The notes beneath the pieces were generated by a model. The model did not search any database, was not told where the DNA came from, and was given only the letters and a program-made list of their open reading frames with translations. From Owenia fusiformis (Eukaryota; Annelida; Polychaeta; Sabellida; Oweniidae): a DNA stretch of 64,000 nt. Shown here in pieces: positions 6,967-62,699 of the stretch. Numbering within the stretch: the stretch's first letter is position 1; each line of letters starts with the position of its first letter. Made by a program: the position numbers and the translations under genes. The DNA is taken from contig CAIIXF020000004.1 of NCBI GenBank assembly GCA_903813345.2, positions 14,329,196 through 14,393,195 on the forward strand, given 5' to 3'.

Positions 6967-7332
6967 TGAATCAATGTTTTCGTGTCATATGATGCGTATT
7001 TTGTGTCATATGACCTACCCGTACCTTTAGAACTTTTGCCACCTATCGTAAGTTAATCGAATTTAATTGAAATTTCTCGATCCAAGAAGAAAATTTGCAC
7101 AAAAATTATAAACTCCGCTTGACATAATCTTTGTCACTCTATCGTCGTCTTGATGAGACACATCGGAACTTGGGATTAATAGCCATTCAACCAAGCAACA
7201 AAAAGTATGTATATTAGTTGTTCAACATTTTCAATTGTGCTAGTATTAAAGGGCACTCGACCTTTAAAGGGCTGAATACTAATCATATTGTATTGTGCTA
7301 GTAAATAATCTAAGCTTTAACAAGTTGTTGGC

Positions 7333-19457: not shown

Positions 19458-22400
19458 TCAATTACAAGTTTGAGAGAAGGGAATTCCGTCATTGATATCA
19501 TTGGCAGGCGAGCCTCCATTGTCGTTAATTATTGGGCAATTTCCACCAAAAGCGGTCATCATGAAAAGGACCGAGGTCGTTGTGTTTGAATTATTCAACA
19601 CATCAATCGGATCTCCGGTCGCCAGTGCCGTGTCAAGACTTAGATCACAGATTATACGATATTCTTCATTTGGTATTACTAAGCCCATGTCACATCTTCC
19701 ACCTGGCCAAACAACAGCGTTATCGCTCACGGCATCGGACGAGCAGGTGATAGTCGATGAACCACTGCACGTGGCCATTTGTTGCGTTACAAGTACGTAA
19801 TTGTCAACACACGGGACGCCACATAACTCTGGATAGAAGAAACAGTATAATCCTGCGTTTGATCCCGGTGCCAATGCTGTTGGTACGGTGACCGAGTCCA
19901 ACGTTACAAAGCACTCGTACAGTGTTACCAAATTCGCATTCAAAATAAATATAGGGGCTTGCGCCGCAACTATTGTTGAAATTGTAAATGTTTTTTTCAC
20001 ACCCTGGTCTATACCTGAAATTGAGAACATTCATTGCACTTTTTAATGAAAGTTAAAAAATCGCGTCAGTTCGGACGATATCAACTCATAGCTTATAAAA
20101 ATACTGTTTCTCACCATCCCCTAAATTCCCGAGAGTGCTTAAATTTCACATGACTGTTCCACAACAAGTTACTTGGACGGAAGCCGAGCACAGGGCGTCA
20201 AATAAGGCTGTTCTCTCCTTAACTTTTTAGATTTAGAAATAACATTTTTTTATATATCATTTTAAAGGGAATTTAATTTCCTGATCACACACTAAATTTC
20301 AGAGAGATTGGTAAAATTCCAAAAGCATTTTTAGTGGTGTTCATATTTCACATTTTTAATAGTTCGTATGTTCTCCAAGCAGCTTGGACAGCCTAAATTC
20401 TACAAGGAGACAATTCCAAAATGTTCACTAACAGACGTGTTGCACTTTCAAGAGCTTTCTTGATACATTTGAGCATTATTTCATTGCTATGAAGTTTCTC
20501 CTCTGGTTGATATTTGATTAATTTTTCGACCCTGTCCATAATAATTGCAGTATCAATGTTTAACGGTTCATTCAATTGTACTCTTTTTGACGCAACCAAT
20601 GGTCAACCGCATCCTTTCAAGAAACATTGTAGCAATTTTATAAGGAAGAGTTCATTATTGATTTCTTAAAAGTGATCAGCATTTTCCATAAACTTTAGAA
20701 TGATATATGGGAAAGTATAATACCTAACAAAATAAAAAAAAGTTAAGGGGAGAACAGACTTATTTGTATGTTGCTTTCTCTAGATCTGTTTAAATGAATG
20801 AACACAGGGAGCTCAACAGGGAGCTCAACAAGGAGCTCAGCAAGCAGCTCAACAAGGAGCTCAACAAGGAGCTAAACAAGGAGCTAAACAAGGAGCTCAG
20901 CAAGGAGCTAAACAAGGAGCTCAGCAAGGAGTTCAACAAGGAGCTCAGCAAGCAGCTCAACAAGGAGCTCAACAAGGAGCTCAACAAGGAGCTTAACAAG
21001 GAGCTCAGCAAGGAGCTCAACAAGGTTAAAATTTGGCACAAAGCCAGAAAATATAGTCAAGATTTAAAAAATGCTTTCCATTCGAAATGTGGTTGTTAAA
21101 TGAAGTTGTAATCGATATATTTAGTATTTTACCAATGAATGTCACTTTAACGTGGACAAAGTACGTCAATGTCACAAAAGTAAGCGACTTATTGTATGAC
21201 TTGATATTCAAAAATCCTTTCCAAACTAAAACATTTTCAAACCTACGTAGACAATTATGCCCAACTTTGTGTCCAAAACTGCTAGTGTTTATTCATTCTA
21301 GATCTTTGTCTGAGCTTTCGGTGGAAGAGGTTGGTTTAAATCAAAAAAACAAAAACTTGTATCAAGAAAGTTCATCCGTTCTCTCACAGTTTTGGACAAG
21401 TGATTTTAAAATATTCTTACCTGAGGTTAAAAACAATCCATCAGAATCATCGTCAACGTACAACAACAAAGTAAATGTTCCAATCTCAGGCACAAAGACA
21501 ACTTTTTGAAATGAGGTAGAATCTACAAATATAAACAGTCTTGATTTTTATGAATTTTTCATTGTTATAACGGGATTGAGAATGTTTACAATAAATACTA
21601 TAATTGTATCACTGTCATATTCCCATTGGTCTCATTGGTCTACACATTAAACGTGACATAAAAATGCTAAATAGACTTCTCCGTGGCATTTTTTCTTTAT
21701 TCCTTTTTGTTTTGATTTTTTAATACTATAACATTAAGTATAACTACTCAATATGCAGCTTTTCACCACGTAGAGTTCTAAAGTTTTTATAATGGAGCTC
21801 AATGGGGAAAATGAATTAAAGTTTGAATTACTTTCAAAGTAGCGAGGCGATTTTCTTGAAATTGACAGATATAATGAATGATAGTAAGATAAATTGTTCG
21901 AAAAAATTGAGAAGATTCACCGTCCTGTTTACGCAAAATATAGAAAATATGAAATAATCATAAAAACCTGTAAAAATAGATCGAAGATATTCATTTTTGA
22001 CGTGCCTTTCAATACTACAGGGTACCCATAGTTTTGGTAATGGTTTACAAATTTTCAAAGCATATCTTCCAGCATATGTATCAAGCACAAGTAATACAAT
22101 AAGTGAGTTATCATTAATTGGAATGGTATTATTGTATTCCTTAGCAATAATGACAAAAAGGTAAAATCGAACATAACACATACTTGTTCTTACCATCACA
22201 TCGATCTATTATAATGCACATTAAACAATATAGGGATAGATCTTCAAATTCAAGAATTGAGCTAAATTGTAAGATAACAATTGTCCTTTAAATAAATTGC
22301 TTATCCCTTATAATCCCTTTCTCCAAATCAAACCGAATTATAATATTTCGGTATGCTTATTTTAGCTGCTGTAGTTTAGGTCACTTGATGAGATAATATT

Positions 22401-29707: not shown

Positions 29708-32112
29708 TAGTCATAACAGAAATGTTTGGGAGTACTTTGAATTTAAAAAATAAGCAATCGAATGACCATATTGAAACAGCTTATGTAAAAATAGAAACAT
29801 TTATATTTATCCTAACTTTTGTATATTTTAGATAGTAATATATAATGTGCAGCAAAGCTGTGGCCTTTTGTAATTTAGGGAGTTTCAGCCATGTTAATTT
29901 TTCCGAAAATAACATGGCAGAGAAGTATCAAAATATAAGAGGACACAGATATGATACAGTTAAATTTTAAATGTTAGTAACTACTTTGAATTTAAAAAAT
30001 AAGCAATCAAATGACCATATTGAAGCAGTATTTAAATACACATTGACCATAAGGTTCAGCTGGAAAGTAACATTTTGGTAAAAAAAATTGCCATTCCTGC
30101 ACATGTTATTTTCTGGTACAAAATCTAGTATGAAGGCATGTGTATATTTCTTTGCTTTTTTCTGGAAAGTATCATCACATTGTCTACTTTTAGTACACCT
30201 GGAAACAGGTCAATGGTAGCTCCTGTGTTGTCTGGAAGCTTTGAAAGAAAATTTGGGAAAATATATAGAAAGTGGGAAATATCAGAATTTCTGGAGTTCC
30301 CATTGACCTCTTACCAGATATACTTAAGGTGCTATGGAAGTTAACAGGAAATGACAAAACAGGAAGTGACAATCTTTTTGCATTTTAGACATTTTTTGAA
30401 CAAGATAACAGAGTTCTGTTTTGACCTCCAGTCAATTCAACTAGTTCCAAATACCATTTACAGGTCCAGCATCACAATTTTCATGACCCTAAACATGATG
30501 AAATAACCTTTTCAGCCCTATTAAAATGTGACTGAAAAATAGCTACAAGAAGGAGGTAGGAAAGGTCACTGAACAGAATCTTTTGAATTTTTCAGAAAAT
30601 GTGCCCAATATATTGCACTCTTTGTGCAAAACTGGAAGATATAGACAATGTTGGGAAGGAGTGATTCTTGTTTGAAAAATAACATGTGACTCAATTGAGG
30701 GATGCAGAAAATTTCCCATCATGCACCCTGACCTTAAAAAAGACAATGTAAAGGTACTTTCCTGAAAAAAGCAAGGAAATTAGCATATGCCTTCATACTT
30801 AATAGTGTACCAGAAAATAACATGTGCAGGTATAGCAATAATTTACCAAAATGTTATTTTCCAGCTGTACCATAAGCCCGTTGGTTTTCAAAGTATAAAA
30901 TATAAATATTTAGGGGGATGAGCGTGATAGATAAAGTCAAAACAGAAATGTTTGGGAGTGCTTTGAGTTTAAAAAATAAGCAATCAAATGACCATATTGA
31001 AACAGTTTATGTAAAAAAAAAACATTTATAGTTATCCTAACTTTTGTATATTTCAGTTTGTTTTGTAATTTAGCTATCATATCTGTGTCCTCTTAAGGAC
31101 AGGGTGCATGTTGGGAAATTTTCTGCATTCCTCAATTGAGTCACATGTTATTTTTCAAACAAGAATAACTCCTTCTCGACATTGTCTACATCTTCCAAGT
31201 TTGCACAAAGAGTGCACTTATGTGCCTAGAAAAGCCTTGTGAGAACGTTTGTTTTGTAAAATGTATAAAAAATGAGAAAATTCAGTGAAAAAAATTTCTG
31301 AAATATTTCTGATTTTTTTCACTGAATTTTCTTGTTTTCTATACACTTTATCAAAACATTCTTCTCACAAGTCTTTTCTGGGCACATAAGTGCACTCTTT
31401 GTGCAAAACTGGAAGATATAGACAATGTGGGGAAGGAGTGATTCTTGTTTGAAAAATAACATGTGACTCAATTGAGGAATGCAGAAAATTTCCCATCATG
31501 CACCCTGACCTTAGACTATATCCTATTTAGTCTGAATTATATTCAGACTATAAGGCACCTATGTTAAAGTTTGGTAATTCCAAATATTTGTTTACATAGG
31601 AAGTGCCATTCAAAATGGCCGATTGGGTAAAATTAATTTGCACATTTTTACTTCAACTAGCTTTATTTCCACTAGACAATAAGCTGTGTTACTTTTTATT
31701 GTATTTAATTGTACCTTACTATTTACTTGAAATTTTGTAATGTTTATTTTATTGGAAAAATGTTTCCTCCAATTGATAATTTTGTGCAAAAAATTTCACT
31801 GCAATTTCCACAGGAAAGTAGTACATCATAACAGACTGACTTCTAGTCAGTCTGTTGGATACATACTAACCCTGACCTTAAATTTTGATACTTCTCTGCC
31901 GTGTTATTTTCGGAAAAACTAACATGGCTGAAACTCCCTAAATTACAAAAGGCAACAGCTTTGCTGCACATTATACATTACTATCTGAAATATACAAAAG
32001 TTAGGATAAATATAAATGTTTCTATTTTTACATAAACTGTTTCAATATGGTCATTTGATTGTTTATTATGAATTCAAAGTACTCCCAAACATTTCTGTTT
32101 TGACTTTATCAC
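29708..32112. mobile_element. Composite inverted-repeat element
   Basis: About 230 bp at 29708-29940 (AACAGAAATGTTTGGGAGTA and onward) returns in reverse complement at about 31880-32112. A third, direct copy of the same end begins at about 30940. A separate long hairpin (31095-31512) sits inside, and its arm is repeated again at about 30590-30735. This looks like several insertions and duplications of one non-autonomous family. No coding region is recognised. Confidence 0.65.
31095..31512. repeat. Long hairpin, ~200-bp arms
   Basis: The left arm starts AAGGACAGGGTGCATG and the right arm ends CATGCACCCTGACCTT. The arms pair almost to the centre near 31300, around AATTTCTGAAATATTTC. It would extrude or fold strongly as single-stranded DNA or RNA. 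Confidence 0.75.
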
Positions 32113-45973: not shown

Positions 45974-48900
45974 ATGAAGTACAAACGGCTTCAAATTATA
46001 TTTTCCATCATTCTGTTGACCAAACTCTACTTCAGTGATGGTATTGTATAATTTTGCATTTATCGCTTTATTTTTGATAATTTACGCGTTTTTAAATATG
46101 GTAGACTATTCTGCAGTTCGTATGAACATACATTTTTTTCACTTGGCCTGTCAAGTCACCTGGTCGTTGTGTTCTTGGGGCTTTGAAAGGGTGTTCCAAT
46201 GGAACAGCTCCAAACGCATGTACGCTATCTGATTTTTCAAAAAAAGTACATATATGTACGTGCATATAAAAATAATCTGAACTATAGGCCAGTGGTATAA
46301 GTCAGTGAATTCGTAGATTCTAGATTTTACCCGGATAAAGGATAGGTATTGATATGGTGAACTGAATTCAACAATGTTTTCTCTTAAACCAATTTTTGAA
46401 ATCATTCTGTAAAAACACAGTGATTTATGCAATGTTGACAATTTAATGCGAAAATAATTTAGAAATATTTTATGTAACTGTTTTTGTTAACAGTTTTTGT
46501 TTTTGTAGTGCAATTATTTTTGCTCCTTTCTACCAATTCTTGAGAATGAAATAAAATGTATTTCCGAACCTTGTTGGACCATAATAGCATACAATATTTT
46601 CTTAGACCTCTCAATGTTATAGTTATACAAAGGAATTTTTGGTTGATATCAAAAAAGTATTAAAGAATTAAAACAACCCCCCCCCAAAAAAAAGAAAATA
46701 GATAAAAATCAAGATAAACCAATTATTTCATTCACAAGATATGTTTTAAAATCAACCAAAATTTCCTTTGTACAATTTCAATATTGAGAGACCTAAATAT
46801 GTTGTGGTTTTGTTTTTTTACAGGAGAGAGAAACGGTCAGATAGTGCGGAGATCTAGCAACACATGTACTTCAATGAAACCAGCAATACCAAAGAATGCT
46901 TTGGAAGTGGCTTACAGGAGCGACAATGCAAAAGGGACTGCGTTTCAAGTAGTAATGTGTGACGTTGGCTACGAACTTGATTTGACAAGTCGAGGGATTA
47001 CAGATCGGATGACGGTAACAAACCTATGCAGTGACGGCGTTTGGACCTATCCACAACTACCAAGTTGTAGATCAAGTGAGTTAGTTGAATGAATGGATGA
47101 CGATCTCTGTAAATTGTAGTGTTCTAGATGCTAAAATGCAGTGAAAATGAAGCTTACCAATGCTTAAATGCAGCATAAATCTAAAATACAGTAGTGTTAT
47201 AAGTCCATAATATGTTCAAGGGACGACATGTGGTGGAAAACATTGGTATGAGCTCGAGCCCGATCACTGTTATTTCGGAGGACTTGCAAGAAATTGGACC
47301 CATAGTCGTGATTCATGTCGAGCTGTTGATGCGGAACTTGTACAGTTCGAGACCGAGAAAGAATACAAGCTTGTAAGGGAGTGGCTTAAAAAGACGTACC
47401 GGGCAGGTGGTATTCATTTGAATTTCGCAAGTGGCTGGCTTTATTGGATTGGACTAACGAATAGAAATGTAAGTTATTTATTGAATAAATATATTCATTA
47501 TTTCAATATATGTTATAATTTTATTAAACTTGTCTTAGCTCAGAAAAATTTTGTATCCCTGCAAAATCGAGTGCTAGATGCTCCCTGAGATCAAGTAATA
47601 TGTGGCAAGAAAGGTGTTGGGTTGTCTGACATCGAATGCCACACACATTGAGGGTGAACAGTATTGAACTTATTGTAACGGAAAATGAAATCACATGTGG
47701 TTTTATTAAGCACTATTTAAGCTTGCCTGGGGGTGTCATGGGTGCGATCGCACCCCCCTCATAATCAATTAAAAAAGAACCATGAAGAAGAAATGTTTTT
47801 ATTTGAAGATTCTACCTCAATTCTAAAGGAAGATGCATCATTTTTTGTTAAATTCAAAATAAATTTTATTTTTTGGCTTGTTTATCCACAATCCCAACCC
47901 GAAATGTTATGGTGATCGCACCACGTGACCCCCCCCCCCCTGACTGACAGCTGGAAACACCCCTGACATGTCATTACGTTCAATGGTTGCAATTACTGGT
48001 TTTGAACTCATATTAATGCTCGTCTTTATAGTCTGATCACTTTTACTGGTTGAACAATATGAACAAGCGTTTGAGTAGTTATGGCTGGACGATTCCATGG
48101 CTCATTGGAGGTGACATACATGGTAATGATCGGAACCCAGCTGGACTGCCTCGCGACACAGTGGCGATGCTTGGATCAACTGACTACAACTACGTATTCA
48201 GAAAGCTTAATAATCAATTTAGGTGGTTAAACAACGATCTGTATACTCACTTCATCTGTGAGAAAGGTAAACGTTATAATTACATAAATTAATAGCGATA
48301 TGTCCAATGTGTCCGGGATCCAATGTCAATGTGTTCAATAGAACCGGTTTCGTTGCCAATGTGTTTTATACCGAAATGCATTATGCCCAATGTCAATTTG
48401 TTAAACTTGAAAAACTGATAAATCATATATAGCATAAATAAAAGTGAATAGATTGGCCTCAAAAGATAAGCATTTACTTATATGTGTATATTCGTTATAT
48501 ATTGTTTTATGAATCATAATCTCTCTGTTTACAATCAATTAAAATACTATCTAACATGTTTTTGTACATGTAGTTCCAAATGGTTGGGGTTACAGAGAGG
48601 TTCGTGCAAATAGAAACCACAGGGTACAACTTTTCCGAGAAAATCAACAAATTTCGCTTGGGATTAAGGTGAGATATTTACATGAATTAAATAGTTACTT
48701 GCTTGCTTGATTGTTTTAGTTGTTTATTAGTTTATATGAAACCTTATTATTACCATAGCGTTTTGTATTAGTTGTCAGTTATGCCGTGGTCACATTTGCT
48801 CCGATTTTCAGCAAAGGCGCCCGGCCGATGAGTATTTTTTTGTTCAAAATTGAATACAATTTCGAATCGGCTGGGCGCCGTAGTAAAAATCGAAGCAAAT

Positions 48901-51900
48901 GTGACCACGGCATAACTGGATATTACACTTGATCCATGTTCATGTAGTTACCATTTTCACTATCAGGTGGCTGATTCGGGGCAGGGTTTTAGAAAATTCC
49001 CTGAAACTTGAATATCCATCAGTGGTTTTAATTCAATTGGTTCAATTTTCATATCACCCTTATGTATTTGATACTTTATCTGATACAAATCAAAATATGT
49101 CCAGTAAAAGACTTCTTCTTCTTCATGTCTGTTCAATATAAATACAGAATATCACATCATTTTGAGTGATATCATTTTTATCGCCGAGTTAATATCAAAT
49201 ATCAACACGAGTGAGCGAAGCGAATGAGTGTTGATATTTGATATCTACGAGGCCATAAAATGATATCACGAGAAATTATGTGATATTGGGTTTATCCCAT
49301 GATTACGATCACCTTGTGATATAGTTCGTCATAAATACAATTTTTAATCGTTATTTAGCAGCCTTCTAATCAAATTATATACACAATCGTAATTTAATAC
49401 ACCAATGAAACTTGAAGAGAATAGATTAACGGACCTATTTTCTCAAAAGAGAATAAATTATCTGACCTAATTTCCAACAATATTGTGGCGCGAAATGCAA
49501 ATGTGATATCACACGGATATGCGTGAGATAAACGATATCACACGCATATGAGTTTGATAAACGATTTTCTGGAAAATATCACACGGATTTCAATGATATC
49601 AGAAATATCAATAGCTGTTATTATACAGATAACACATTAATCGTGGGATAAGAAAATATATTCACTTTTTGTGATTCTACAACATAGGGTCTATGGGGAA
49701 TCCCCCTGACCAAGAAGTCACTTTTTCAAAGAAAATTAAATTTTCAAAGTTGATAAACATTTTTGAAAACTACATTTCTAGATGTAATTTTACATGTTGA
49801 TTTCAAATATGATGTCACTGACTGAATCTTTAATTTTTAATGACGTAAATCAAGATTATTTTTACTCGCATCTAGTCTATTATGTCACCACCAAAAGTGG
49901 TGACATATTGTTATGGTCTCCGTTTTTTTTGCGACGGCGGTTGGTGGTTGGCGTCCGGCGTCCGGCGGTTGGTGGTTGGCGTCCGGCGTCTGTAACAATT
50001 TCTTACAACTTCCTATAACTTAACAAATACTGTTTAGACTGACTTCAATTTTTTTCTAAATCATCTACATGTTCTCAGAAGTTCAAATCTGACTTTAGAT
50101 TTGACATTTGACCTTCAATGACCTTCTCAAGGTCAAAAAGGTCTTTTTTCAACTTGCTTCACATTGACTAAATTTTTTTTCAAAATCATCTACATGTTCT
50201 CAGAAATTCAAATCTGACTTTAGATTTGACTTTAGATTTGACATTTGACCTTCAAATCTGACTTTAGATTTGACATTTGACCTTCAATGACCTTCTCAAG
50301 GTCAAAAAAGGTCAAAAAGATCTGTTTTCAACTTGCTTCAAATTGACTAAATTTTTTTTTCAAAATCATCTATGTGTTCTCAGAAATTCAAATCTGACTT
50401 TAGATTTGACTGAAGATTTGACATTTGACCTTCAATGACCTTCTCAAAGTCAAAAAAAGGTCAAAAAGGTCTTTTTTCAACTTGCTTCAAATTGACTAAA
50501 TTTTTTTTTCAAAATCATCTACATGTTCTCAGAAATTCAAATCTGACTTTAGATTTGACATTTGACCTTCAATGACCTTCTCAAGGTCAAAAAAGGTCAA
50601 AAAGGTCTGTTTTGAACTTGCTTCAAATTGACTAAAAAGAATTTTAAAAATCATCTACGTGTTCTCAGAAATTCAAATCTGACTTTAGATTTGGCTTAAG
50701 ATTTGACATTTGACCTTCAATGACCTTCTCAAAGTCAAAAAAGGTCAAAAAGGTCTTTTTTCAACTTGCTTCTAATTGACTAAATTTTTTTTTCAAAATC
50801 ATCTACATGTTCTCAGAAATTCAAATCTGACTTTAGATTTGACATTTGACCTTCTTAATGTCAAAAAAGGTCAAAAAGGTCTTTTTTCATCTTGCTTCAA
50901 ATTGACTAAATTTTTTTTTCAAAATCATCTACATGTTCTCAGAAATTCAAATATGACTTTAGATTTGATTTAAGATTTGACATTTGACCTTCAATGTCCT
51001 TCTCAAGGTCAAAAAAGGTCAAAAAGGTCTTTTTTCAACTTGCTTCAAATTGACGAAATTTTTTTTTCAAAATCGTCTACATCTTTTCAGAAGTTCAAAT
51101 TTGACGTTTACAAGTTCTCAGAAGTTCAAATCTGACTTTAGATTTGACCTTTGACCTTCAATGACCTTCTCAAGGTCAAAAAGGTCTTTTTTCAACTTGC
51201 TTCAAATTGACTAATTTTTTTTTCAAAATCATCTACATGTTCTCAGAAGTTCAAATCTGACTTTACATTTGACATTTGACCTTCAATGACCTTTTCAAGG
51301 TCAAAAAGGTCTTTTTTCAACTTGCTTCAAATTTACTTATTTTTTTTTTCAAAATCATCTACATGTTCTCAGAAGTTCAAATCTGACTTTACATTTGACA
51401 TTTGACCTTCAATGACCTTCTCAATGTCAGAAAAAGTCAAAGAGGTATTTTTTCAACTTGCTTCAAATTGACGAATTCTTTTTTCAAAATCATCTACATG
51501 TTTTAAGAAGTTCAAATCAAACCTTCTTAAGGTCAAAAGGTATTTTCCAACTTGCTTTAAATTGACCAAATTGTTTTAGGTGGTGACATTTTGTCATGTT
51601 AATGCCTTGTTAATCACTGTTCCTCAGTTTCAATCGACCACATTTTAAACCTATTTTGTTTAAATTGAAAAACTACTAAGTAAATGTTAAAGCAGTAACC
51701 ATCTTGTTTGTGGCATATTGTTTTTAAAAAAACTTGTTTGAGACTCCAGGGTGTCCTACCAAGTTCTGATTACCTAAAATATGTCTATGGACCTGCGGCT
51801 TTGCGTCGATCCTTTGCGAGTGAAGTTATATTCAATGGAGAATTACGATTAAGAAATGAAGAGTGGGCAAAAACAATTATACGTCTAAGCGTTCTTAAAC

Positions 51901-54900
51901 TGGATCAAGATAAGCAACAAGCGCGTGGTATATCGTGTGATGGAAATGGACGCGCATTTCATAATAAGAAGACCATTACAAAAGATTTGAAAACAGGGAG
52001 AATAACATATGAAGTTTCCGATCCCAAACTTGACTGCAGCTTCAGTCAAGGTCAAGGGTGAGTTCTAACTACTTGACATTTCTTGTCATTTGCCGGTTTC
52101 TTCAAATAATATAATACGTCATCGTTTATTGCGCAGCTCTATACGTCCATACGTGTGATATTCCCACGTAAGCTTACAGACAGCGATTTAAAAGAATATC
52201 ACACTTATGGACGTATAGAGCTGTGGCATAAATGATAACCTAATCAAACGCTTTATAAGTTATGTGTTCTACGGGAATAATAAACATGTTATAAGTGAGT
52301 TGGAAAATCTCTATATTGTTGCATTGTTTGACTATCAGTACTCATGGTGATGTTCGAAATCATGAAAACTTATTGAAAGTCTTTGAGAACCCCCCATCAA
52401 ATTCAATACCGCACTCATAACCATACATAATCAGTACTAACAATGACTGACCTATTTATACAAAATTCGTCACAAAATATACAAAACCAATAATACATAT
52501 TTTGTACATACTACTATTGTTATTAAAGAATCCTATTTTTCAGTGTGAGAGTTAAGATTACAAATAAAGCTGACTTGACGAATACACCGGGTCTTTACAT
52601 TGTTACAGAAAAAGAACAGGGTATCAGTGATGCTGTATATATATTTGTTATTGGTGAGTATATACATCATGTACATCTACATTATTTCTCAAATTCTTAG
52701 CCGAAGTGCAACTTATAATAAGAACCTACTCTTTTATCGTTCAATGCAACGAAACTCGCTTTGTAATGTGGTGTGTGAGTTAGCCCCATATTACATTATC
52801 ATACATTGTAAAAGAAAAATTCTCTAGTTTTAGCCCCGTATTATATTATGTTATATGTGTTACGTAATATTTTATTGTATTTGACTCTATACATGTTTTT
52901 CTAATCTATGTGTGTACATGCAATTTTATAATTATTTGTTAATAATGTATAGAAAAAAACTTGATCACTACGTTCCATCTGAAAATATTGATATCATCTT
53001 TGACATTCCCCATATAATGTCCCTCCTGGTGAATAACCACTTTTTCTATAATAGGGTGGCGTTGTAATTGTATATGGTATACATGAGCAACATGATATGT
53101 AGAGATTATCCTATGTGAGGTTCATGATATTGGGATTATGCCGACCAAAGACCAATATAATATATCTGGTCAAAGGGCCTAGATCCCGAAGGCAAATACA
53201 TCACATTGGCCGACGGATAATCCCAATATCCTGAAACGAATATAGAATGATCTGTTTAACCGGGCAGATATAATACCAGGTCGTTCAATAAGTTAATGCA
53301 AAAATGCTCTTATTGTTTATTTTTCAATTTTTTCCCTTAAACTCATACAAAAATCTTTACGCATTAAGAGACAAAAAATAAATTTATTTTTACTGATTGA
53401 TGAAATGTTATGGTTGCCATGGCGACTTGTGTTTTGGTCATGCGGTGCAATTTAGGACGTGAAAAAAATTAAATTTTGATAAAACTCTTGTGTTGACAAT
53501 CTAAATTATAAAATTCCAAACTCCTTTATTCCAAGAATCCCATTTTTAAATTTCTTAATTTTCTTATTTAGGAAGTGATGGATGGTCGAATTGGTCGCCT
53601 TGGTTTGAATGCATATGTGATACTACGAGTGGTGCTTTCAAAAAGTTTCAGTACCGAAGATGCGATTCTGTCAATTTTCCAAATGTTTGTTCGGAGGATA
53701 TCGAAACAAGATCTAAAGACTGTACACATACAGGTGGAAAAACGTGTCAGGGTAAGATACGCGTATTGCTTATGAATATATATATTTTTATTCCTATGAA
53801 CTGTTTTATTTCTTATTGAGATTTACACGTACAAATGCAACAAAATCGGAAAAGTATGCTTCGGACAAATATTACATGAGAAAATACCCTCTTCTACTTC
53901 TGCGAAGTGATTGCAATATGTTTTAAATATGACTGATATCCACTGTGTATCAGATTCCATACATTTACCTTTCTAGTGACATATAAAACATCAAGGAAAA
54001 TATATAATTTACAAATAAAATATTCATTCTCTTTTCAGTAAGATGTGTACTCGATGAATGGGGTCCATATCAATGTTCGCCGAGTTGTGGAAATAATATC
54101 CAATGCATCCGATCAAGAAGCCCAGCCCCAGGCAGTGGACCTTGCGACCCCTCAAAGCTTACCTCTACGACAAGACAAAGTTGGCCATGCCCTTCAAGTA
54201 ATTGTCCAGTTCTTAACTAGAAGTATTGAAGTTAGAGCATCATCAGATACAAATCATCAATGGAACTTTGTGTACACGTATCAGTAACGACATCTAATGG
54301 GTCCGATAATCGAGTGAGAAACCCAAACCAAGACGTTGTGAAAATTATGTTAAAATGAGGAAATTTTCCCTCGATTATTGGAGCTACTGGATGTAGTTGC
54401 TCATGACTGACAACTTTTCAATAACCGGAAGTAATTATTGACATACGGGTGAAATATTTGTACAAATCAACTTCATTGTTGGTGAAAATGATGAAAATGA
54501 CAACCTTACATTTACTTAAACGTAACGCCTTTAACCAGGTGGGGACCAGTGATTATGGCCCTCGGGTGATCACCCTCCCCCCCCCAAATTCATAGTGTCT
54601 ACTGGTCTCGTTTAGTTTAAAGATAATATAAAAATAATAGTTGAGAGGGGGATCTTTGTGGGTCATTTTTATATAACAACATCATATTTAACGTGCTTTG
54701 AAACATATAGCTCCCTTATGTTATAGCTCAAACACCGCCAACGACCGAAGCAAGCAGTCCGCCCACTGAAGGTAACCAACCTGTTGTCAGTAACCCTCCA
54801 ACTACAGACAACAAACCTGCTGAAACTAACACACCCCCTGCTGTCAATAACTCTCCTGCTGGAATTAGCCCATCTGTTGGAAATAACCAACCTGGAAGCA

Positions 54901-55920
54901 GTAACCCTCCAACTTCAGACCAACCTGCTGAAAATAACCCATCTACTGAAAATAACGCACCTGCTGGAAATAACCAACCTGCTGGAAATAATCAACCTAC
55001 TGTTGGTAGTAACAATCCAACCACAGATAGAGCACCTGCTGGAATTAAACCAACTGCTGGAAATAACCCTACAACTGGAAAAACCCAACCTGCTGGGACA
55101 AAGCCCCCTCCAGGGAATGTTAACCCCGGAAGCACAGCAGGTATAACTTTGTTATGCAGTCATTACACAAAAGTCGTAAAGATATGGTCAAATCACCCCT
55201 CGCCTCCCTTCTTGTCGTTTGATATACATCAATGAAATTATCAAATCAATTGTGCCATTGGAAAGCTTGTTCAAACACATTACGGGTATATATATTTTCT
55301 GTACCGAATCTATTAACTTTGAATGAAATGTTCATTACTCCGGGGTAGTCCTTACTGGAAATTTTAATTTATGTCGCGTATTAGTGGCTCAAATGGAAAA
55401 TTGTTTGATCTTCCAGCTTCAAATTAAAATCGTTATAGAAGAGCCTTCCAAGTTTGCATAAAGGGTTATTTGTAGTACACATTTTTTTATATACAATTTA
55501 CATTCAAGTTTCTTCAATACTCTTCAATGGAAATACGAGGAACTATACAATTGACTCTTTTTACAATGACCGTATTCCCTATGATTTTGAAATCAATCCA
55601 CTTATGATGTACGAACTACTTTCTTCGCATTCTTAAGTTTGATAATATTTTCAGCAAAGACAGGTCCAATCGTTGGAGGTATACTAATTGCGGTATTAAT
55701 TGTGATCTGTGGTGCGATTTTCATGATAAGAAGGAAATTGGGGGCAGCCAAATCTCAAAAAGAAGCAGATCAACAGGATGGAATTGATGGTCTTAATGGT
55801 TCAGATGCGAGTGATGTCGATTCCGATGCAGAAGACCAGCCGTTTATAGGTGGTTTTCGTGGACGAGGTCGTGGACGAGGATTAGGGAGAGCGAGAGGGA
55901 GAGGGAGACGAGGATTTTAG
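45974..55920 (+). CDS. Type I membrane receptor: CCP, C-type lectin, two TSP1, mucin-like stalk, RG-rich tail; 11 exons, 777 aa
   Basis: Exons: 45974-46040, 46824-47075, 47221-47468, 48032-48266, 48574-48668, 51750-52057, 52544-52653, 53572-53751, 54039-54197, 54727-55140, 55655-55920. All have GT-AG borders, and the phases close to one 2334-nt frame. Layout: signal peptide (1-22); CCP/sushi (37-104, four Cys, CSDGVWTYPQLPSC); C-type lectin fold (110-267, with YWIGLTNRN and FICEK); an unrecognised region (268-438); TSP1 with WSNWSPW (439-498); a shorter second TSP1 (499-551); a Pro/Thr/Asn-rich stalk (552-689); a transmembrane helix GGILIAVLIVICGAIFMI (about 697-714); and an acidic, then Arg-Gly tail ending GRGRRGF. 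The lectin domain lacks EPN/QPD/WND calcium-sugar motifs and the third canonical Cys. A surface recognition or adhesion role is inferred. The exon 9 donor (GTAATT) and exon 6 acceptor are the softer borders. Confidence 0.88.
46601..46800. mobile_element. Inverted-repeat MITE in receptor intron 1
   Basis: AGACCTCTCAATGTTATAGT at the left pairs with ACCTAAATATG-side sequence at the right (reverse complement AGGTCTCTCAATATTGAAAT). Both arms continue through ACAAAGGAA(A/T)TTTTGGTTGAT. The right tip is about 24 bases before exon 2. Confidence 0.6.
48776..48918. mobile_element. Palindromic MITE in receptor intron 5
   Basis: CAGTTATGCCGTGGTCACAT at the left and its reverse complement at the right, with a CCGATTTT/AAAATCG continuation. 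143 bp. Confidence 0.75.
49145..49650. repeat. Palindromic AT-rich repeat in receptor intron 5
   Basis: It contains AATATCAAATATCAACAC and its reverse complement around GAGTGAGCGAAGCGAATGAG, plus several ATATCACA(C/A) repeats. It looks like a degenerate inverted-repeat transposon. Confidence 0.5.
49883..51613 (-). mobile_element. Tandem-repeat-cored element, copy 2, inverted relative to 16232-17866
   Basis: It starts at TGTCACCACCAAAAGTGGTG, then CGGCGGTTGGTGGTTGGCGT, followed by about a dozen units with CTTTAGATTTGACATTTGAC and ATCATCTACATGTTCTCAGA. It ends at TTTTGTCATGTTAATGCCTT. Both boundaries coincide with copy 1. It makes up over half of receptor intron 5 and ends about 137 bases before exon 6. 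Confidence 0.65.
52118..52234. mobile_element. Hairpin MITE in receptor intron 6
   Basis: CAGCTCTATACGTCCATA at the left and TATGGACGTATAGAGCTG at the right are exact inverted copies. The arms extend through GTGTGATATTC. Confidence 0.75.
53118..53245. mobile_element. Short inverted-repeat MITE in receptor intron 7
   Basis: TTCATGATATTGGGATTATG pairs with GGATAATCCCAATATCCTGA. About 125 bp, non-coding. Confidence 0.55.
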
Positions 55921-55993: not shown

Positions 55994-55999
55994 AATAAA
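55994..55999 (+). terminator. Poly(A) signal of the lectin receptor
   Basis: AATAAA 74 bases after the stop codon at 55918-55920, followed by a T/GT-rich stretch. This fits a short 3' UTR. Confidence 0.6.
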
Positions 56000-57454: not shown

Positions 57455-57949
57455 ATGTGCAATACCAAGTACAAAAGGATTCAATTTATACTTTCCATCA
57501 TTCTGTGGACCAAGCTCTACTTCAGCGATGGTATTGTATAATGTTGTATTTTTGCTTAATGTTTTTTATATTTCTCAGCTTCCTTGACTCTAAAACATCA
57601 AGGTCGATGGACTTTTATGCAATGCGTATCCTGAAATTGAAATAATTTTTCTCAAAAGTTTCTGGATCTGATGATCTTTAATGAAATTATGTTACAGGCG
57701 AGGGAAACGGGCATATAGAGCGGAGATCTAGCAATAAATGTACGTCAATGAAACCAGCAATACCAAACAATGCTTTTGAAATGGCTTTCAATGTCATAAA
57801 TGCAGAATGGACTGCGTTTCAAGTAGTAATGTGTGACGTTGGCTACGAACTTGACTTGGCAAATCGAGGAACTAACGATCGGATGACAGTGACAAACCTA
57901 TGCAGTAACGGCGTCTGGACCTACCCACAACTCCCTCGTTGTAAATCTA
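57455..57949 (+). CDS. Tandem paralogue of the lectin receptor, first two exons (signal peptide and CCP)
   Basis: Exon 1 (57455-57530) gives MCNTKYKRIQFILSIILWTK and on to YFSDG, parallel to the first gene's MKYKRLQIIFSIILLTK. Exon 2 (57698-57949) is 252 nt, the same length and phase as its counterpart, with the CCP motifs CTSMKPAIP, VVMCDVGYELDL and CSNGVWTYPQLPRC. Both exons are open, and the CCP residues are largely conserved, consistent with selection. Intron 2 begins at 57950 and holds a LINE. Sequence homologous to the first gene's short intron 2 reappears only at about 63425-63540, and the lectin exon expected after it is not seen by 64000. The gene either continues past the window or has lost its remaining exons. 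Confidence 0.75.
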
Positions 57950-58190: not shown

Positions 58191-60419
58191 TTAGCTATTG
58201 TCTATAATGAAGTCAAGTATCAGTGAAATGGCTTTAGAGTTTACATCTATGCTTAAGTTTGGGCTTCCTGTTTTCAAAATGGATATAAAATCGTACTGGG
58301 GAAGATTATTATTGAGAGAAGGTTCTAATTCAGCAAGTTTATCCCAGAGATCCTGTCTTACTAAGGTTAAGCGATTGCACTGGAAAAGAATATGCTTTAA
58401 GGTTTGAGAGCTGCCACAAGCACAATTAGGGCTGTCAACAGAGTTAAAATTATGGGCATAAAATTGAGCTTTAAAAAATAAGTCAGCTCTTACTTTATTC
58501 ACCACTATCTCATGCTGTCTAGAAAGATTGAGTTGACTTGTGGTCAAAATTTTAGAGGGGTTTTGGAGGAAAAGCCGTTGGTGTTTTTTGAAATTATGAA
58601 GAGTTTTCTTGGTTTTAATAGAAGGGGGGAGCTCTAGCCATTTTGAGATTGCAGAAGGTATTGCTGAGGATGAGAATCTAGCAGAGCATCTTATGGGCAT
58701 TTTGAATGGATCAATGTATCTCAAGTTTCTATTCCTAACATTACTATACTTATCAAAAATGTCTGTGATATATGAGGGTCTTGTACCATTGGCAACTTTG
58801 AACATAAAATTATTTGATTGTATTCTACGTCTAGATTCAAGTGTTGGCCAGTTTAGGAGACTTAGGACCTTTTCTGTACTGCTCCCTTGGATGCAGCCAG
58901 AACAATAGAGTGCCGCTGTGTAATATAGACTATCGAGTCTTCGCAAAAGAAATTTAGAAGCTGTGCCATATAAAATGGCACCATAATCAAAGTGAGGAAG
59001 AATGAATGATTTGAAGATTGTTTCTAGGTGCTTGCTCCCAAGCTTGAATTTGAGTTTCTTTAATGGGTTTAACATTTTTCTTATTTTGACTAGTAAATCA
59101 CCAATATGCTTATCATAAGATAAACATGGGTCAAAAATGAGTCCTAAATGTTTGTGCTCGGTATCTCTTTTGATTTCTATATTGTTTAGTTTTGAAGTTG
59201 ACACATTATCAGTTTTTGTTCTAGGTGAGTGAAAAATCATCTCGGAACTCTTCTCCGGTTTAAAATCAAGTTTCCAAGTGTTAGACCATTCTTCTACTTT
59301 AATTAGATTGGATTTTACCACTGCTTCTATTTGTTGTGGTTGTTTTGGGTCAAAAGGATGGTGTAATGAGGTATCATCTGCATAAATGTAGCAATGGCCA
59401 TCCAGATTGTCTGGAAGGTCATTAATATATATTAGAAAAAGTATTGGCCCTAGTATTGAGCCCTGTGGGACACCGCAGTTTATAAAATTAGTTTCTGAGT
59501 AATTGGAGGTCTCACCAGAAATTTGAACAGCAATTTTCCTGTTGGTAAGATAAGATGTGATCATTTTAAGGATTTGACCTTGAAAACCATACGCCTTGAG
59601 TTTATGGAGGAGTAACGAGTGCGGAACCCGGTCAAAAGCGGCGGCTACGTCCAAAAATATTGTTTTGGAGGCTTGTCCTTGTTCAAAAGTAGTTTGAAGA
59701 AAATGCTCGATAGATAAAAGTTGATGAATGGTGCTATGACCAGGTAAAAATCCGGACTGATACTTAAAAAGAAGATCATTATCAAGTAAGTGTTTTCTGA
59801 TTCTGTCAGCAAGAACCTTTTCAAAAACTTTGGATATGGAGCTTAGCAAGGTGATAGGTCTGTAGTTATTAACATTTGATTTATCATTTTTTTTAAAGAT
59901 TGGACAAACATTGCCTATTTTCCAAATATCTGGATAAGTGCATTTAGTTAGAAGTTTATTAAATAATATGGTAAGAGGTTTTGAAATGGTATGAGCTGTA
60001 AGGTTCAACATTTTGTTAGTGATATTATCTGGCCCGCATGCTTTGGAGGTATCTAAGGAGAGAATTATTTTCATAATTTCAAATTGGTCAGTCTTAGCGG
60101 AAATGAGTAAAGAATTTGTCCTCATAGGGAATAGAGGCAAATGGTCAAAACAGGCATCTGTATGGTTTTTAGAAGCAAAATAGTTCATGAATTTGTTTGC
60201 AATATCAAGGTTATTTGAAAGTGCGTGTCCAGTAATTTCATCATAAATGCTAGATATGCTGTTTTTCGTCAAATTTGTGCCTAAAAATGATTTGATGATT
60301 CTCCAATAATTTTTATCGGACTTATTTAGCTGGTCAATTGATGATAAGGTTTTTTTTTCGTGATCTATTTTGGCTTGTTCAACAAGTTGGGCAACTTTAG
60401 TTGCCTGTTGGTCATATAT
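58191..60419 (-). CDS. LINE ORF2, reverse transcriptase part
   Basis: It reads from just after the internal stop through IYDQQATKVAQLV to the terminal stop. Reverse transcriptase motifs in order: KIGNVCPIFKKND, NNYRPITLLSSISKVFEKVL, FLDVAAAFDRVPH, GVPQGSILGPILFLIYINDL, and the catalytic YIYADDTS. These are followed by a thumb region and a C-terminal CACGSS..LKHILFQC zinc-knuckle-like segment typical of this LINE group. Catalytic aspartates are intact. It is in the same frame as the endonuclease part upstream. Confidence 0.9.
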   Translation of the reverse strand: MYDQQATKVAQLVEQAKIDHEKKTLSSIDQLNKSDKNYWRIIKSFLGTNLTKNSISSIYDEITGHALSNNLDIANKFMNYFASKNHTDACFDHLPLFPMRTNSLLISAKTDQFEIMKIILSLDTSKACGPDNITNKMLNLTAHTISKPLTILFNKLLTKCTYPDIWKIGNVCPIFKKNDKSNVNNYRPITLLSSISKVFEKVLADRIRKHLLDNDLLFKYQSGFLPGHSTIHQLLSIEHFLQTTFEQGQASKTIFLDVAAAFDRVPHSLLLHKLKAYGFQGQILKMITSYLTNRKIAVQISGETSNYSETNFINCGVPQGSILGPILFLIYINDLPDNLDGHCYIYADDTSLHHPFDPKQPQQIEAVVKSNLIKVEEWSNTWKLDFKPEKSSEMIFHSPRTKTDNVSTSKLNNIEIKRDTEHKHLGLIFDPCLSYDKHIGDLLVKIRKMLNPLKKLKFKLGSKHLETIFKSFILPHFDYGAILYGTASKFLLRRLDSLYYTAALYCSGCIQGSSTEKVLSLLNWPTLESRRRIQSNNFMFKVANGTRPSYITDIFDKYSNVRNRNLRYIDPFKMPIRCSARFSSSAIPSAISKWLELPPSIKTKKTLHNFKKHQRLFLQNPSKILTTSQLNLSRQHEIVVNKVRADLFFKAQFYAHNFNSVDSPNCACGSSQTLKHILFQCNRLTLVRQDLWDKLAELEPSLNNNLPQYDFISILKTGSPNLSIDVNSKAISLILDFIIDNS

Positions 60420-61484
60420 TTATTTATTAAGTTGAGAGGGAGATTTGGAAAATTTCTTGTAAAGTGTTTTCTTCTTCGATAGTTCTTTTTTAAGTGTACT
60501 GGTGATCCATGGCTGATCATTTGACCGAACAGTTATAATTTTATTTGGAATTCTGGATTTGTATATATCCATGAGTTTATTCATAAAGTTAGAGGTAGCC
60601 AAATCTAAGTCTATATTCTCATTTAAAATATGTAACCAGTTTGTGTTCCTGATTGCGTTGTTCAGATTTTCTAAGTTGACTTCGTTGTATTTCCAAATAG
60701 TTTTTTTTATAGGTTTGGATTTGGTTACTCCAATCTTTATTTGTGCAGTGATAGTGCTGTGGTCGGTCATGCCTATAGGGTCACATATTTCAAAATGGTC
60801 AAATATATCAGGTGAGTTGGTCAAAATATGATCTATGCATGATTTGGAATGGTCAGTAATTCTAGTTGGTTCATTAATAATTTGAACATAGTCATTAAGA
60901 TCTAAGGTTTCCAAGAGTTTTGTCCCTGCAAGATTGGTATCTTGGTTGTCAAACCATATGGAATGTTTAGCGTTGAGGTCACCCATCAAAATAACATGAT
61001 CAAAGGATGGTCGGTACCTTTCTATTTGTTCAAGTAAGTTGTTTAATGAAGAAAAATAATTACGCGTTTCAGTGGCATTCTGGCTCGGTGATCTATAGCA
61101 TGAGCCAATAAGGATTCTTTTATGGTTCACAATGATAGTCAAAAGAAGGGCATCAATCCCATTTAAATTAAGATCACCGGGTTTAAATGCCTTGGTCACT
61201 ATACTGTTATGGATATAAAGGACCAGACCCCTGCCAAGTTCACTAGAAAATGTATTGTAATCATTTAAGTCAAAGTCACCAGAATCCATCCTTATTTTTG
61301 AGATACCGGCCTCACAGAGGCCGACAACACTTGGGTTAATTTCATTTACCCTGAGTTTTAGGGATTCAAATCTTAGGCCGTTATTGGCTGTCAAGCTATT
61401 AATGTTTGAGAACAGAAATGTCAAATTATTTTGTCCTGGATTAGGATGAACATCCCCTGCTATGAGGAGTAACAGCATATTCAT
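60420..61484 (-). CDS. LINE ORF2, apurinic-type endonuclease part
   Basis: Starts at MNMLLLLIAGDVHPNPG, the hallmark N terminus of many animal CR1/Jockey LINEs. Endonuclease motifs: LFSNINSL, VVGLCEAG, ILIGSCYRSPS, LMGDLNAKHSIW, CIDHILTN and MTDHSTI. The Asp/Asn/His residues expected for nicking are all present. It ends at the TAA 60420-60422 after PSQLNK. Confidence 0.88.
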   Translation of the reverse strand: MNMLLLLIAGDVHPNPGQNNLTFLFSNINSLTANNGLRFESLKLRVNEINPSVVGLCEAGISKIRMDSGDFDLNDYNTFSSELGRGLVLYIHNSIVTKAFKPGDLNLNGIDALLLTIIVNHKRILIGSCYRSPSQNATETRNYFSSLNNLLEQIERYRPSFDHVILMGDLNAKHSIWFDNQDTNLAGTKLLETLDLNDYVQIINEPTRITDHSKSCIDHILTNSPDIFDHFEICDPIGMTDHSTITAQIKIGVTKSKPIKKTIWKYNEVNLENLNNAIRNTNWLHILNENIDLDLATSNFMNKLMDIYKSRIPNKIITVRSNDQPWITSTLKKELSKKKTLYKKFSKSPSQLNK

Positions 61485-62699
61485 ATTTGGAATAAAAAAA
61501 ATTGTTTGATTGGTCAAACCGGGTCACACGTCATGAAAAATTATGCGACAGTCCAGAGGGGGAGAAACACCAGGGTTCAAAGATGACATACGCTTATAAT
61601 GTAAATCTGTATTGAGATGACATTGTCGCTGATTGGTCAAAAGTCGACAAACAAATGACGTCATCAATGGCGGTTTCAAAATTTTCGAAATACGCTTCGA
61701 GTAATATTATGTTCATTTCTGGCGTGTTAACCAATATCATAGCTTCTCATTTCACAACAAGATAAAGCAAGGTGTACGGAATATGCCTATGTCAATTAAA
61801 ACATCCCATCGAAGTGTAGTATTTGATAACTAGCCGATGAAAATTCGAACGAACGAAGGTAAGCAAGAGAGGTAATTATGTATGTCATCTTTAAACTCTG
61901 GGACTTTCCCTCCTCTTGCGACAGTCACTGACCAAACTTATCAGGCACGCCGTGAATAAAAATTCATATACGTCACTTTGAATTTATAAAATATGTACAC
62001 CCAACATGTGAAATCCTAGTAATAACAAGTTGAACGTTGTTAAACAATGAATTGAACAATGTCACGTTATGTGTATTGAAGAATGGTTGCTTGGCGGTAA
62101 TAATTGAAACAAATTTTCCATTCTATTTTTGGTGAACATGCTCGACACTTTCAAAATATGATATTCCACTAGCCCTTCTTATGGATTACCTCGAGGTTTC
62201 ACATTTGCGGAATACATATACTATAAGCTAGTCATCCGATAGACATGTTTCTCATATGACTATCAAAGATACAACCGTCTTTACCCAAATGCAAGATATT
62301 GCCATCTTTCATCCTAAAACGTGACATGTACAAGATGACATTACACAAGATGACATTATGCATCGACAACATGGTAAGTTGGCAACAGATACACAGTTGA
62401 TCATGAGTATCCAATTCCCATTCTACAAAACTAAGTTTTGATGTTATAACAATGGAGCTTTGTTGTAATGCGTATTCATGTATTTTCTACTATGTATTTC
62501 TACTTGTTGTTATGATGTCACAACAATTGTGAAATGAAGCTCCAAAAAATTTGTAGCATATTGTACTCGTACCTGTGCAAAATCGTCCATTCTTGACTCG
62601 CTTTGTTTATGTTTATAAATGTATCTTTTATTCCACCATAAATGATGAGTACGATATAACATAAAGTTATTTAAGATATAATATATAAGAATAGAAATA

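What the first reader, a model, noticed from the sequence alone, without database searches (positions are those of the whole stretch)
45974..55920. Apparently undescribed receptor architecture: CCP + C-type lectin + TSP1 x2 + mucin stalk + transmembrane + RG tail
Seen: eleven exons join into one 777-aa frame with recognisable modules in this order. Known: CCP, CTLD and TSP1 occur together in some invertebrate surface proteins. I do not recall this exact order with a central 170-residue orphan region and an arginine-glycine tail. It is the most complete candidate for a new recognition or adhesion receptor in the window.
Basis: partly seen in the sequence, partly recalled or inferred. Interest (0 to 1): 0.7.

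Follow-up and report, generated by a model that had tools for sequence, protein, structure and literature searches.

The report
Tandem family of lectin-like surface proteins
The gene is real: it encodes a probable cell-surface protein built from a lectin-like domain, an unclassified domain and thrombospondin-type repeats, and its tandem copies and a distant relative suggest that the combination was assembled by reshuffling exons, an ordinary kind of invention in invertebrate animals although this exact arrangement was not found described.

Summary
Eleven exons at exactly the stated coordinates join into one 777-aa frame. The strongest support is new: two tandem copies lie just downstream in the same genome with the same eleven exons, order and intron phases; copy 3 is intact (755 aa), copy 2 carries an in-frame stop. 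Exons 1-9 are 62-92% identical in DNA, intron edges 13-63%; dN/dS between the intact copies is 0.41. So this is a protein under purifying selection, not chance.

The labels need correcting. The lectin-like domain is real (Pfam) but lacks the calcium/sugar motifs, so it probably binds protein. TSP1 repeat 2 is supported by profiles, repeat 1 weakly. CCP rests on four Cys and a Trp; Pfam failed, fold prediction was uninformative. The stalk is Asn/Pro-rich rather than mucin. The 172-residue centre stays an orphan.

A relative on C1 has the ectodomain, with no stalk or membrane exon found; C8 holds two small genes of leader, stalk and membrane segment. The receptor may be a phase-1 exon-shuffling fusion of these two kinds. 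Best reading: lineage-specific adhesion/recognition surface protein, a new variant of a known kind.

The parts
45974..46040 (+). exon 1: start codon and signal-peptide-like leader (aa 1-22), phase 1 donor
   Evidence: hydrophobic core 2.99 over 9 residues, more than anywhere else in the ectodomain, though only 1.07 over 19; same exon in both tandem copies and in two C8 genes; no signal-peptide program was run
46824..47075 (+). exon 2: CCP-like module, Cys 37, 68, 91, 104 and Trp 96
   Evidence: Cys and Trp invariant in 4 of 4 copies; Pfam Sushi not listed at E<=10 for 3 of 3 copies given; hhalign to ten real CCPs of this genome P 0.012, probability 3.5%; AlphaFold pLDDT 40.5, uninformative
47221..47468 (+). 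exon 3: first half of C-type lectin-like domain
   Evidence: Pfam Lectin_C E 1.6e-5, over cut-off; PDB CLEC matches
48032..48266 (+). exon 4: second half of C-type lectin-like domain, no EPN/QPD/WND
48574..48668 (+). exon 5: start of the central orphan region (aa 268-299)
51750..52057 (+). exon 6: core of the orphan region
   Evidence: no Pfam match over cut-off; AlphaFold of the exon alone pLDDT 58.5, pTM 0.49, helices then four strands; no significant PDB fold match
52544..52653 (+). exon 7: end of the orphan region (to about aa 439)
53572..53751 (+). exon 8: TSP1-like repeat 1, WSNWSPW motif, six Cys
   Evidence: hhalign P 5.3e-4, probability 31%
54039..54197 (+). exon 9: TSP1 repeat 2, CSPSCG motif, six Cys
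   Evidence: hhalign P 2.5e-7, probability 93%, C1 row included; the C1 counterpart passes Pfam TSP_1 with 30.8 bits
54727..55140 (+). exon 10: Asn/Pro-rich low-complexity stalk with an 18-nt repeat
55655..55920 (+). exon 11: transmembrane helix, acidic Ser/Asp stretch and Arg-Gly tail, stop
55994..55999 (+). AATAAA after the stop; copies 2 and 3 also have one 46 and 68 nt after their stops
57455..57530 (+). tandem copy 2, exon 1
57698..57949 (+). tandem copy 2, exon 2 (CCP-like); its exons 3-11 lie beyond the window to extended coordinate 72616; copy 3 at extended 75422-91345

Best explanation
It is one gene, the first of a tandem trio, encoding a type I single-pass surface protein. Shown by sequence: leader, CCP-like module, C-type lectin-like domain without the usual sugar/calcium motifs, an orphan region conserved in two tandem copies and, at low identity, on C1, two TSP1-like repeats, an Asn/Pro-rich stalk, one transmembrane helix and a short tail of acidic residues followed by Arg-Gly repeats. 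Inferred: the lectin-like domain and CCP-like module form the tip and bind a protein (or glycosaminoglycan-bearing) partner on another cell or in the matrix, the TSP1 pair lends rigidity and matrix binding, the unstructured stalk holds the head off the membrane, and the tail anchors or clusters the protein through electrostatic contacts rather than tyrosine signalling (no tyrosine in the tail in two of three copies). The likeliest use is adhesion or recognition in a lineage-specific family.
For: Gene unity: 11 of 11 exons, 10 of 10 intron phases shared by three copies; dN/dS 0.39-0.47; exons conserved, introns less. Lectin-like domain. No sugar motifs: (EPN, QPD, WND absent and four Cys in 4 of 4 copies). 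TSP1. Leader, membrane helix, stalk and tail. Ectodomain order shared with C1 at 34% identity.
Against: No expression, localisation or ligand data. CCP not confirmed. Orphan fold unresolved. No signal-peptide or topology program was available; the leader does not stand out in a 19-residue hydropathy window (0.83-1.12, no window over 1.6), only in a 9-residue one. Pfam TSP_1 does not report the C4 repeats. The Arg-Gly tail is unusual for a receptor and is absent from the C8 relatives. C-type lectin-like domains without the motifs can still bind sugars (recalled).
Confidence: 0.6

Rival explanations
1. The gene makes a secreted protein mainly: exon 9 is read through its donor to the stop at 54218-54220, giving a TSP1 repeat with the canonical last Cys, and exons 10-11 are an optional membrane form or belong elsewhere.
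For: An in-frame stop follows the exon 9 donor in three of three copies; only in copy 1 does the read-through add the Cys. Copies 2 and 3 have an AATAAA overlapping that stop. The C1 relative appears to end after TSP1 repeat 2 with AATAAA 58 nt later.
Against: Copies 2 and 3 lack the extra Cys in the read-through; the start of intron 9 (0.31-0.51) is within the range of other intron edges; exons 10 and 11 stay in phase and in order in all three copies; the spliced form has an even twelve Cys in the TSP1 pair.
Confidence: 0.15
2. A pathogen-recognition receptor of innate immunity, diversifying by tandem duplication.
For: Three tandem copies; lectin-like and sushi domains are reported among invertebrate immune candidates (PMC10140915 and PMC11797021, passages).
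Against: dN/dS is below 1 in 30 of 30 rows (27 region rows and 3 whole-gene rows; selection at single sites was not tested); no tyrosine in the tail of two of three copies.
Confidence: 0.2
3. A calcium-dependent sugar-binding lectin.
For: Pfam Lectin_C over cut-off and WIGL motif.
Against: EPN, QPD and WND absent and only four Cys in 4 of 4 copies.
Confidence: 0.08
4. Prediction artefact: exons of neighbouring genes joined by eye.
For: No transcript evidence; low-complexity exon 10 and tail could be spurious; edges were chosen by eye.
Against: All eleven exons repeat in order in two copies.
Confidence: 0.02

Closest known systems
C-type lectin-like domain superfamily (Pfam PF00059); best PDB matches CLEC2 and CLEC6A members
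   Same: Domain over Pfam cut-off; WIGL core; four Cys at positions that fit the N-terminal pair and the outer disulfide (pairing recalled, not tested)
   Different: No EPN/QPD/WND; the inner Cys pair is missing; embedded in a new order
CTLD group 14 (thrombomodulin, CD93, CLEC14A, CD248; PMC6852297, passages)
   Same: Type I layout: lectin-like head, CCP-like module, small Cys-rich repeats, low-complexity stalk, one TM, short tail
   Different: CCP-like module comes before the lectin-like domain; TSP1 in place of EGF; orphan region; 4 instead of 8 Cys in the lectin-like domain
Selectins (CTLD-EGF-CCP order recalled; CTLD, sushi and EGF layout mentioned in PMC6852297)
   Same: Adhesion receptors mixing lectin-like and CCP modules
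   Different: Order differs, no EGF, no calcium motifs here
TSP1 superfamily (Pfam PF00090)
   Same: WxxW and CxxSCG motifs (meaning recalled), six Cys per repeat; C1 counterpart passes Pfam
   Different: Copies on C4 not reported by Pfam TSP_1; CTLD beside TSP1 also occurs elsewhere in this genome (C2:10320793 and C2:10321932-10323233)
Species-specific CTLD-containing proteins of bivalves and ctenophores (PMC10140915, PMC11797021, passages)
   Same: Lineage-specific rearrangement of CTLD with sushi and other domains
   Different: No CCP-CTLD-orphan-TSP1-TSP1-TM order in the passages seen; figures are not held

Membership tests
C-type lectin-like domain | Profile match | tested here: met
   E 1.6e-5, 26 bits against a cut-off of 22.6; 27.8 bits
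C-type lectin-like domain | Outer disulfide cysteines (Cys139 and Cys265) | tested here: met
   positions kept in 4 of 4 copies; pairing itself not tested
Calcium-dependent C-type lectin | EPN or QPD and WND motifs (recalled as defining) | tested here: not met
   absent in 4 of 4 copies
CCP/sushi | Four Cys and an invariant Trp (as stated in PMC6852297) | tested here: met
   invariant in 4 of 4 copies
CCP/sushi | Pfam Sushi profile | tested here: not met
   no match listed at E<=10 for 3 of 3 copies given (the filters drop most matches above about 0.1); positive control one search found 150 in this genome
CCP/sushi | Profile-profile match and fold | tested here: inconclusive
   P 0.012, probability 3.5%, against controls 0.27, 0.40, 0.29; pLDDT 40.5
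TSP1 repeat (second) | Profile match | tested here: met
   P 2.5e-7, probability 93% (the profile includes the C1 row, which passes Pfam by itself); Pfam on the C4 pairs of copies 1 and 3 not met
TSP1 repeat (first) | Profile match | tested here: inconclusive
   P 5.3e-4, probability 31%; Pfam only TSP1_CFP_C at E 1.5 and 3.8, below cut-off, and none for the C1 row
Mucin-like stalk | Pro/Ser/Thr-rich (as in PMC6852297) | tested here: not met
   Ser+Thr 23, 17, 10%; Asn 16, 20, 26%; copy 1 alone is borderline
CTLD group 14 | CTLD with eight Cys followed by sushi, EGF, mucin, TM | tested here: not met
   definition
Type I membrane protein | Signal peptide and single TM helix | tested here: inconclusive
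   one strong hydrophobic segment (Kyte-Doolittle 2.99 at 696-714); leader 2.68-3.12 over 9 residues but 0.83-1.12 over 19; no prediction program

The most novel reading that the evidence does not exclude
The receptor family is a traceable exon-shuffling fusion: a symmetric phase 1-1 block (exons 2-9, 1587 nt, CCP-like to TSP1), of the kind that the C1 relative carries without a stalk or membrane exon that I could find, was placed in the first intron of a three-exon gene for leader, stalk and membrane segment of the kind still present twice on C8. Both parent types persist in the genome. The orphan region would be a new domain spread with this block.
Probability: 0.3. Interest if true: 0.5.

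Novelty: new variant of a known kind. Interest (0 to 1): 0.36.

Why it matters
It gives a worked case of how a new surface protein is assembled in an invertebrate: three tandem copies, a relative with the ectodomain only and two small stalk-membrane genes allow the fusion order to be tested. The conserved orphan region is a candidate new extracellular domain, and an Arg-Gly tail on a surface protein is unusual (judged from memory). The general phenomenon, lineage-specific shuffling of lectin-like domains, is already known.

Tried and rejected
Rejected: chance reading frames (three co-conserved copies); two-gene split (same); calcium-dependent sugar-binding lectin; region-wide positive selection (no row with dN/dS above 1). 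Led nowhere: profile searches of the PDB for the CCP-like exon (1 match, E 0.83, a Tudor-domain protein) and the orphan exon (4 matches at E<=10, best 0.38); AlphaFold of exon 2 alone and exon 6 alone, with Foldseek on the latter (476 matches at E<=10, none at E<=0.001; best 0.11, SacM, with SnoaL-like and NTF2-like proteins among the next); weak Pfam listings below cut-off (DUF7888 E 0.13 for the orphan of copy 3, Pinin_SDK_N E 0.067 for the tail); a C1-based orphan search (only itself); alignment A3, which placed exon fragments badly and was not used. Of the weak lectin-like hits I followed two, on C11 and at C4:13.1 Mb; within the 15 and 10 kb fetched no other module of this gene was found at better than E 0.07. 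Papers: nine searches (eight on the architecture or its parts, on the possible species). Listings were partial (24 of 25; 20 of 166; 10 of 235; 15 of 32); nothing listed or read showed this order.

This is a guess.
Full report
What was checked. The window is C4:14329196-14393195 of an unnamed 498-Mb eukaryote assembly, G000. The edges were chosen to be GT-AG, so that alone proves little.

Why it is one gene. Searching the own genome with the central region, the N-terminal half and the tail brought up two more sets of exons on C4 just downstream. After fetching the flank, tblastn found a counterpart of each of the eleven exons, in order, for two further copies. Copy 2 runs from window 57455 to extended coordinate 72616 and copy 3 from 75422 to 91345. 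All ten junctions of each copy have the same phase as in copy 1; exons 2, 3, 4, 5, 7, 8 and 9 have identical lengths in all three. Copy 3 reads 755 aa without an internal stop; copy 2 has an in-frame stop in exon 6, so it may be a recent pseudogene or an assembly error. DNA identity is 0.62-0.92 for exons 1 to 9, 0.36-0.56 for the stalk exon and 0.58-0.77 for the last exon; 200-base intron edges are 0.13-0.63. Whole-gene dN/dS is 0.47, 0.41 and 0.39 for the three pairs; none of the 30 rows (27 region rows, 3 whole-gene rows) exceeds 1 (highest 0.85, TSP1 repeat 1, copies 1 and 2, 35 synonymous sites). All three have AATAAA 46-73 nt after the stop.

The modules. Lectin-like domain: Pfam Lectin_C 26 bits, over its cut-off; PDB sequence matches to CLEC2 and CLEC6 members. 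It has four Cys and no EPN, QPD or WND in 4 of 4 copies, so calcium-dependent sugar binding is unlikely. CCP-like module: four Cys and a Trp invariant in four copies, the pattern by which sushi domains are described in PMC6852297 (passages), yet no Pfam Sushi match was listed at E<=10 for copies 1, 3 and C1, although the same profile finds at least 150 CCPs in this genome. Against a profile of ten of those (ten plus-strand, well-spread places that I picked from the 150) hhalign gave P 0.012 with a probability of only 3.5%, and three other exon profiles of the same gene gave 0.27, 0.40 and 0.29. AlphaFold of the exon alone was uninformative. TSP1: repeat 2 matches a profile of eight TSP1 repeats from this genome at P 2.5e-7, repeat 1 at 5.3e-4, the CCP-like exon at 0.69; the relative on C1 passes Pfam TSP_1 in the repeat 2 position with 30.8 bits, while the C4 pairs of copies 1 and 3 and the C1 repeat 1 do not. 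The ectodomain profile matches thrombospondin-1 repeats in the PDB at E 2.1e-4 (the profile includes the C1 row); copy 1 alone reaches only E 0.028. The orphan region (aa 268-439) has no Pfam match over cut-off and no significant PDB sequence match (best E 0.38; a T-cell receptor chain overlaps it at E 0.079); exon 6 alone folds at pLDDT 58.5 and pTM 0.49 into helices followed by four strands without a significant PDB fold match. The stalk is Asn/Pro-rich with an 18-nt repeat; Ser+Thr is 23% in copy 1 but 10% in copy 3, so mucin is not the conserved property. The leader has a hydrophobic core of 2.68-3.12 over nine residues, above anything else in the ectodomain (1.87-2.17), but does not stand out over 19 residues. 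One strong transmembrane helix is followed by an acidic stretch and 7-11 RG dipeptides; the tail has no tyrosine in two of three copies.

Relatives elsewhere in the genome. C1:57119884-57125620 carries the CCP-like module, lectin-like domain, a longer orphan exon and two TSP1 repeats at 34% identity, with intron phases that match at seven of seven junctions (edges chosen with copy 1 as guide, one corrected by hand, exon 5 the least sure). No stalk or membrane exon was found there by tblastn or by eye; a stop and an AATAAA 58 nt later follow TSP1 repeat 2, though a splice donor just before that stop could lead to further exons. Its leader exon was not identified. C8:37119903-37121446 and C8:37124003-37126908 each splice, all in phase 1, to a small frame of leader, stalk and membrane segment; no CCP-like, lectin-like or TSP1 exon was recognised in the 24 kb fetched, and the Arg-Gly tail is absent. 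Exon 1 is 75-82% identical in protein to copy 1 over the aligned part, and the first 120 bases of intron 1 are 0.36-0.58 identical between C8 and C4 genes, as against 0.30-0.46 among the C4 genes. Two histories fit: fusion of a C1-like block into a C8-like gene, or loss of exons 2-9 from a C4-like gene to give C8. The exon 2-9 block is 1587 nt, symmetric in phase 1. I cannot tell them apart with one genome.

How it probably works. Shown: sequence anatomy and constraint. From general knowledge: CCP, lectin-like and TSP1 modules commonly mediate protein and matrix contacts. Inferred: an adhesion or recognition protein with a head that does not bind sugar in the classical way, on a flexible stalk, with an electrostatic rather than tyrosine-signalling tail. 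Rivals are listed; the secreted form is the most serious structural one.

Known or new. The paper searches on the architecture and its parts did not bring up this order in what was listed. Passages read: PMC11797021 reports ctenophore CTLD proteins combined with Ig, EGF and sushi; PMC10140915 says most metazoan CTLD-containing proteins arise by species-specific arrangements; PMC12549020 deals with sea anemone matrix; PMC6852297 defines CTLD group 14; PMC9539403 was read for the chromosome number only. Other papers were seen only in search listings. CTLD beside TSP1 exists elsewhere in this genome (C2), where at least 148 CTLD, 150 TSP1 and 150 CCP matches are found (lower bounds), so new combinations are expected. 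Verdict: a real gene, a new variant of a known kind.

Noticed in passing
window 58191-61523, minus strand: Non-LTR retrotransposon frames: reverse transcriptase and endonuclease (Pfam), lying in intron 2 of tandem copy 2.
   Followed up: partly
window 50251-51518: Minisatellite with a period of about 148 (or 274) bases in intron 5, about 1.3 kb of that intron's 3.1 kb.
   Followed up: no
window 7321-8544, plus strand: Open frame of 407 codons that resembles by eye a heparan sulphate 2-O-sulphotransferase type (recalled); no Pfam match at E<=0.01.
   Followed up: partly
window 19458-20030, minus strand: 190-codon Cys-containing open frame without a Pfam match at E<=0.01.
   Followed up: partly
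window 29931-29987: Weak match to exon 1 with two stops (E 0.027), perhaps a decayed copy of the leader exon or chance.
   Followed up: no
G000:C8:37119903-37126908 (loci L043, L044): Two three-exon genes of leader, stalk and membrane segment, related to exons 1, 10 and 11 of this gene.
   Followed up: partly
G000:C2:10320793-10323233: CTLD match just upstream of an array of TSP1 repeats on the same strand: apparently another CTLD-TSP1 combination.
   Followed up: no
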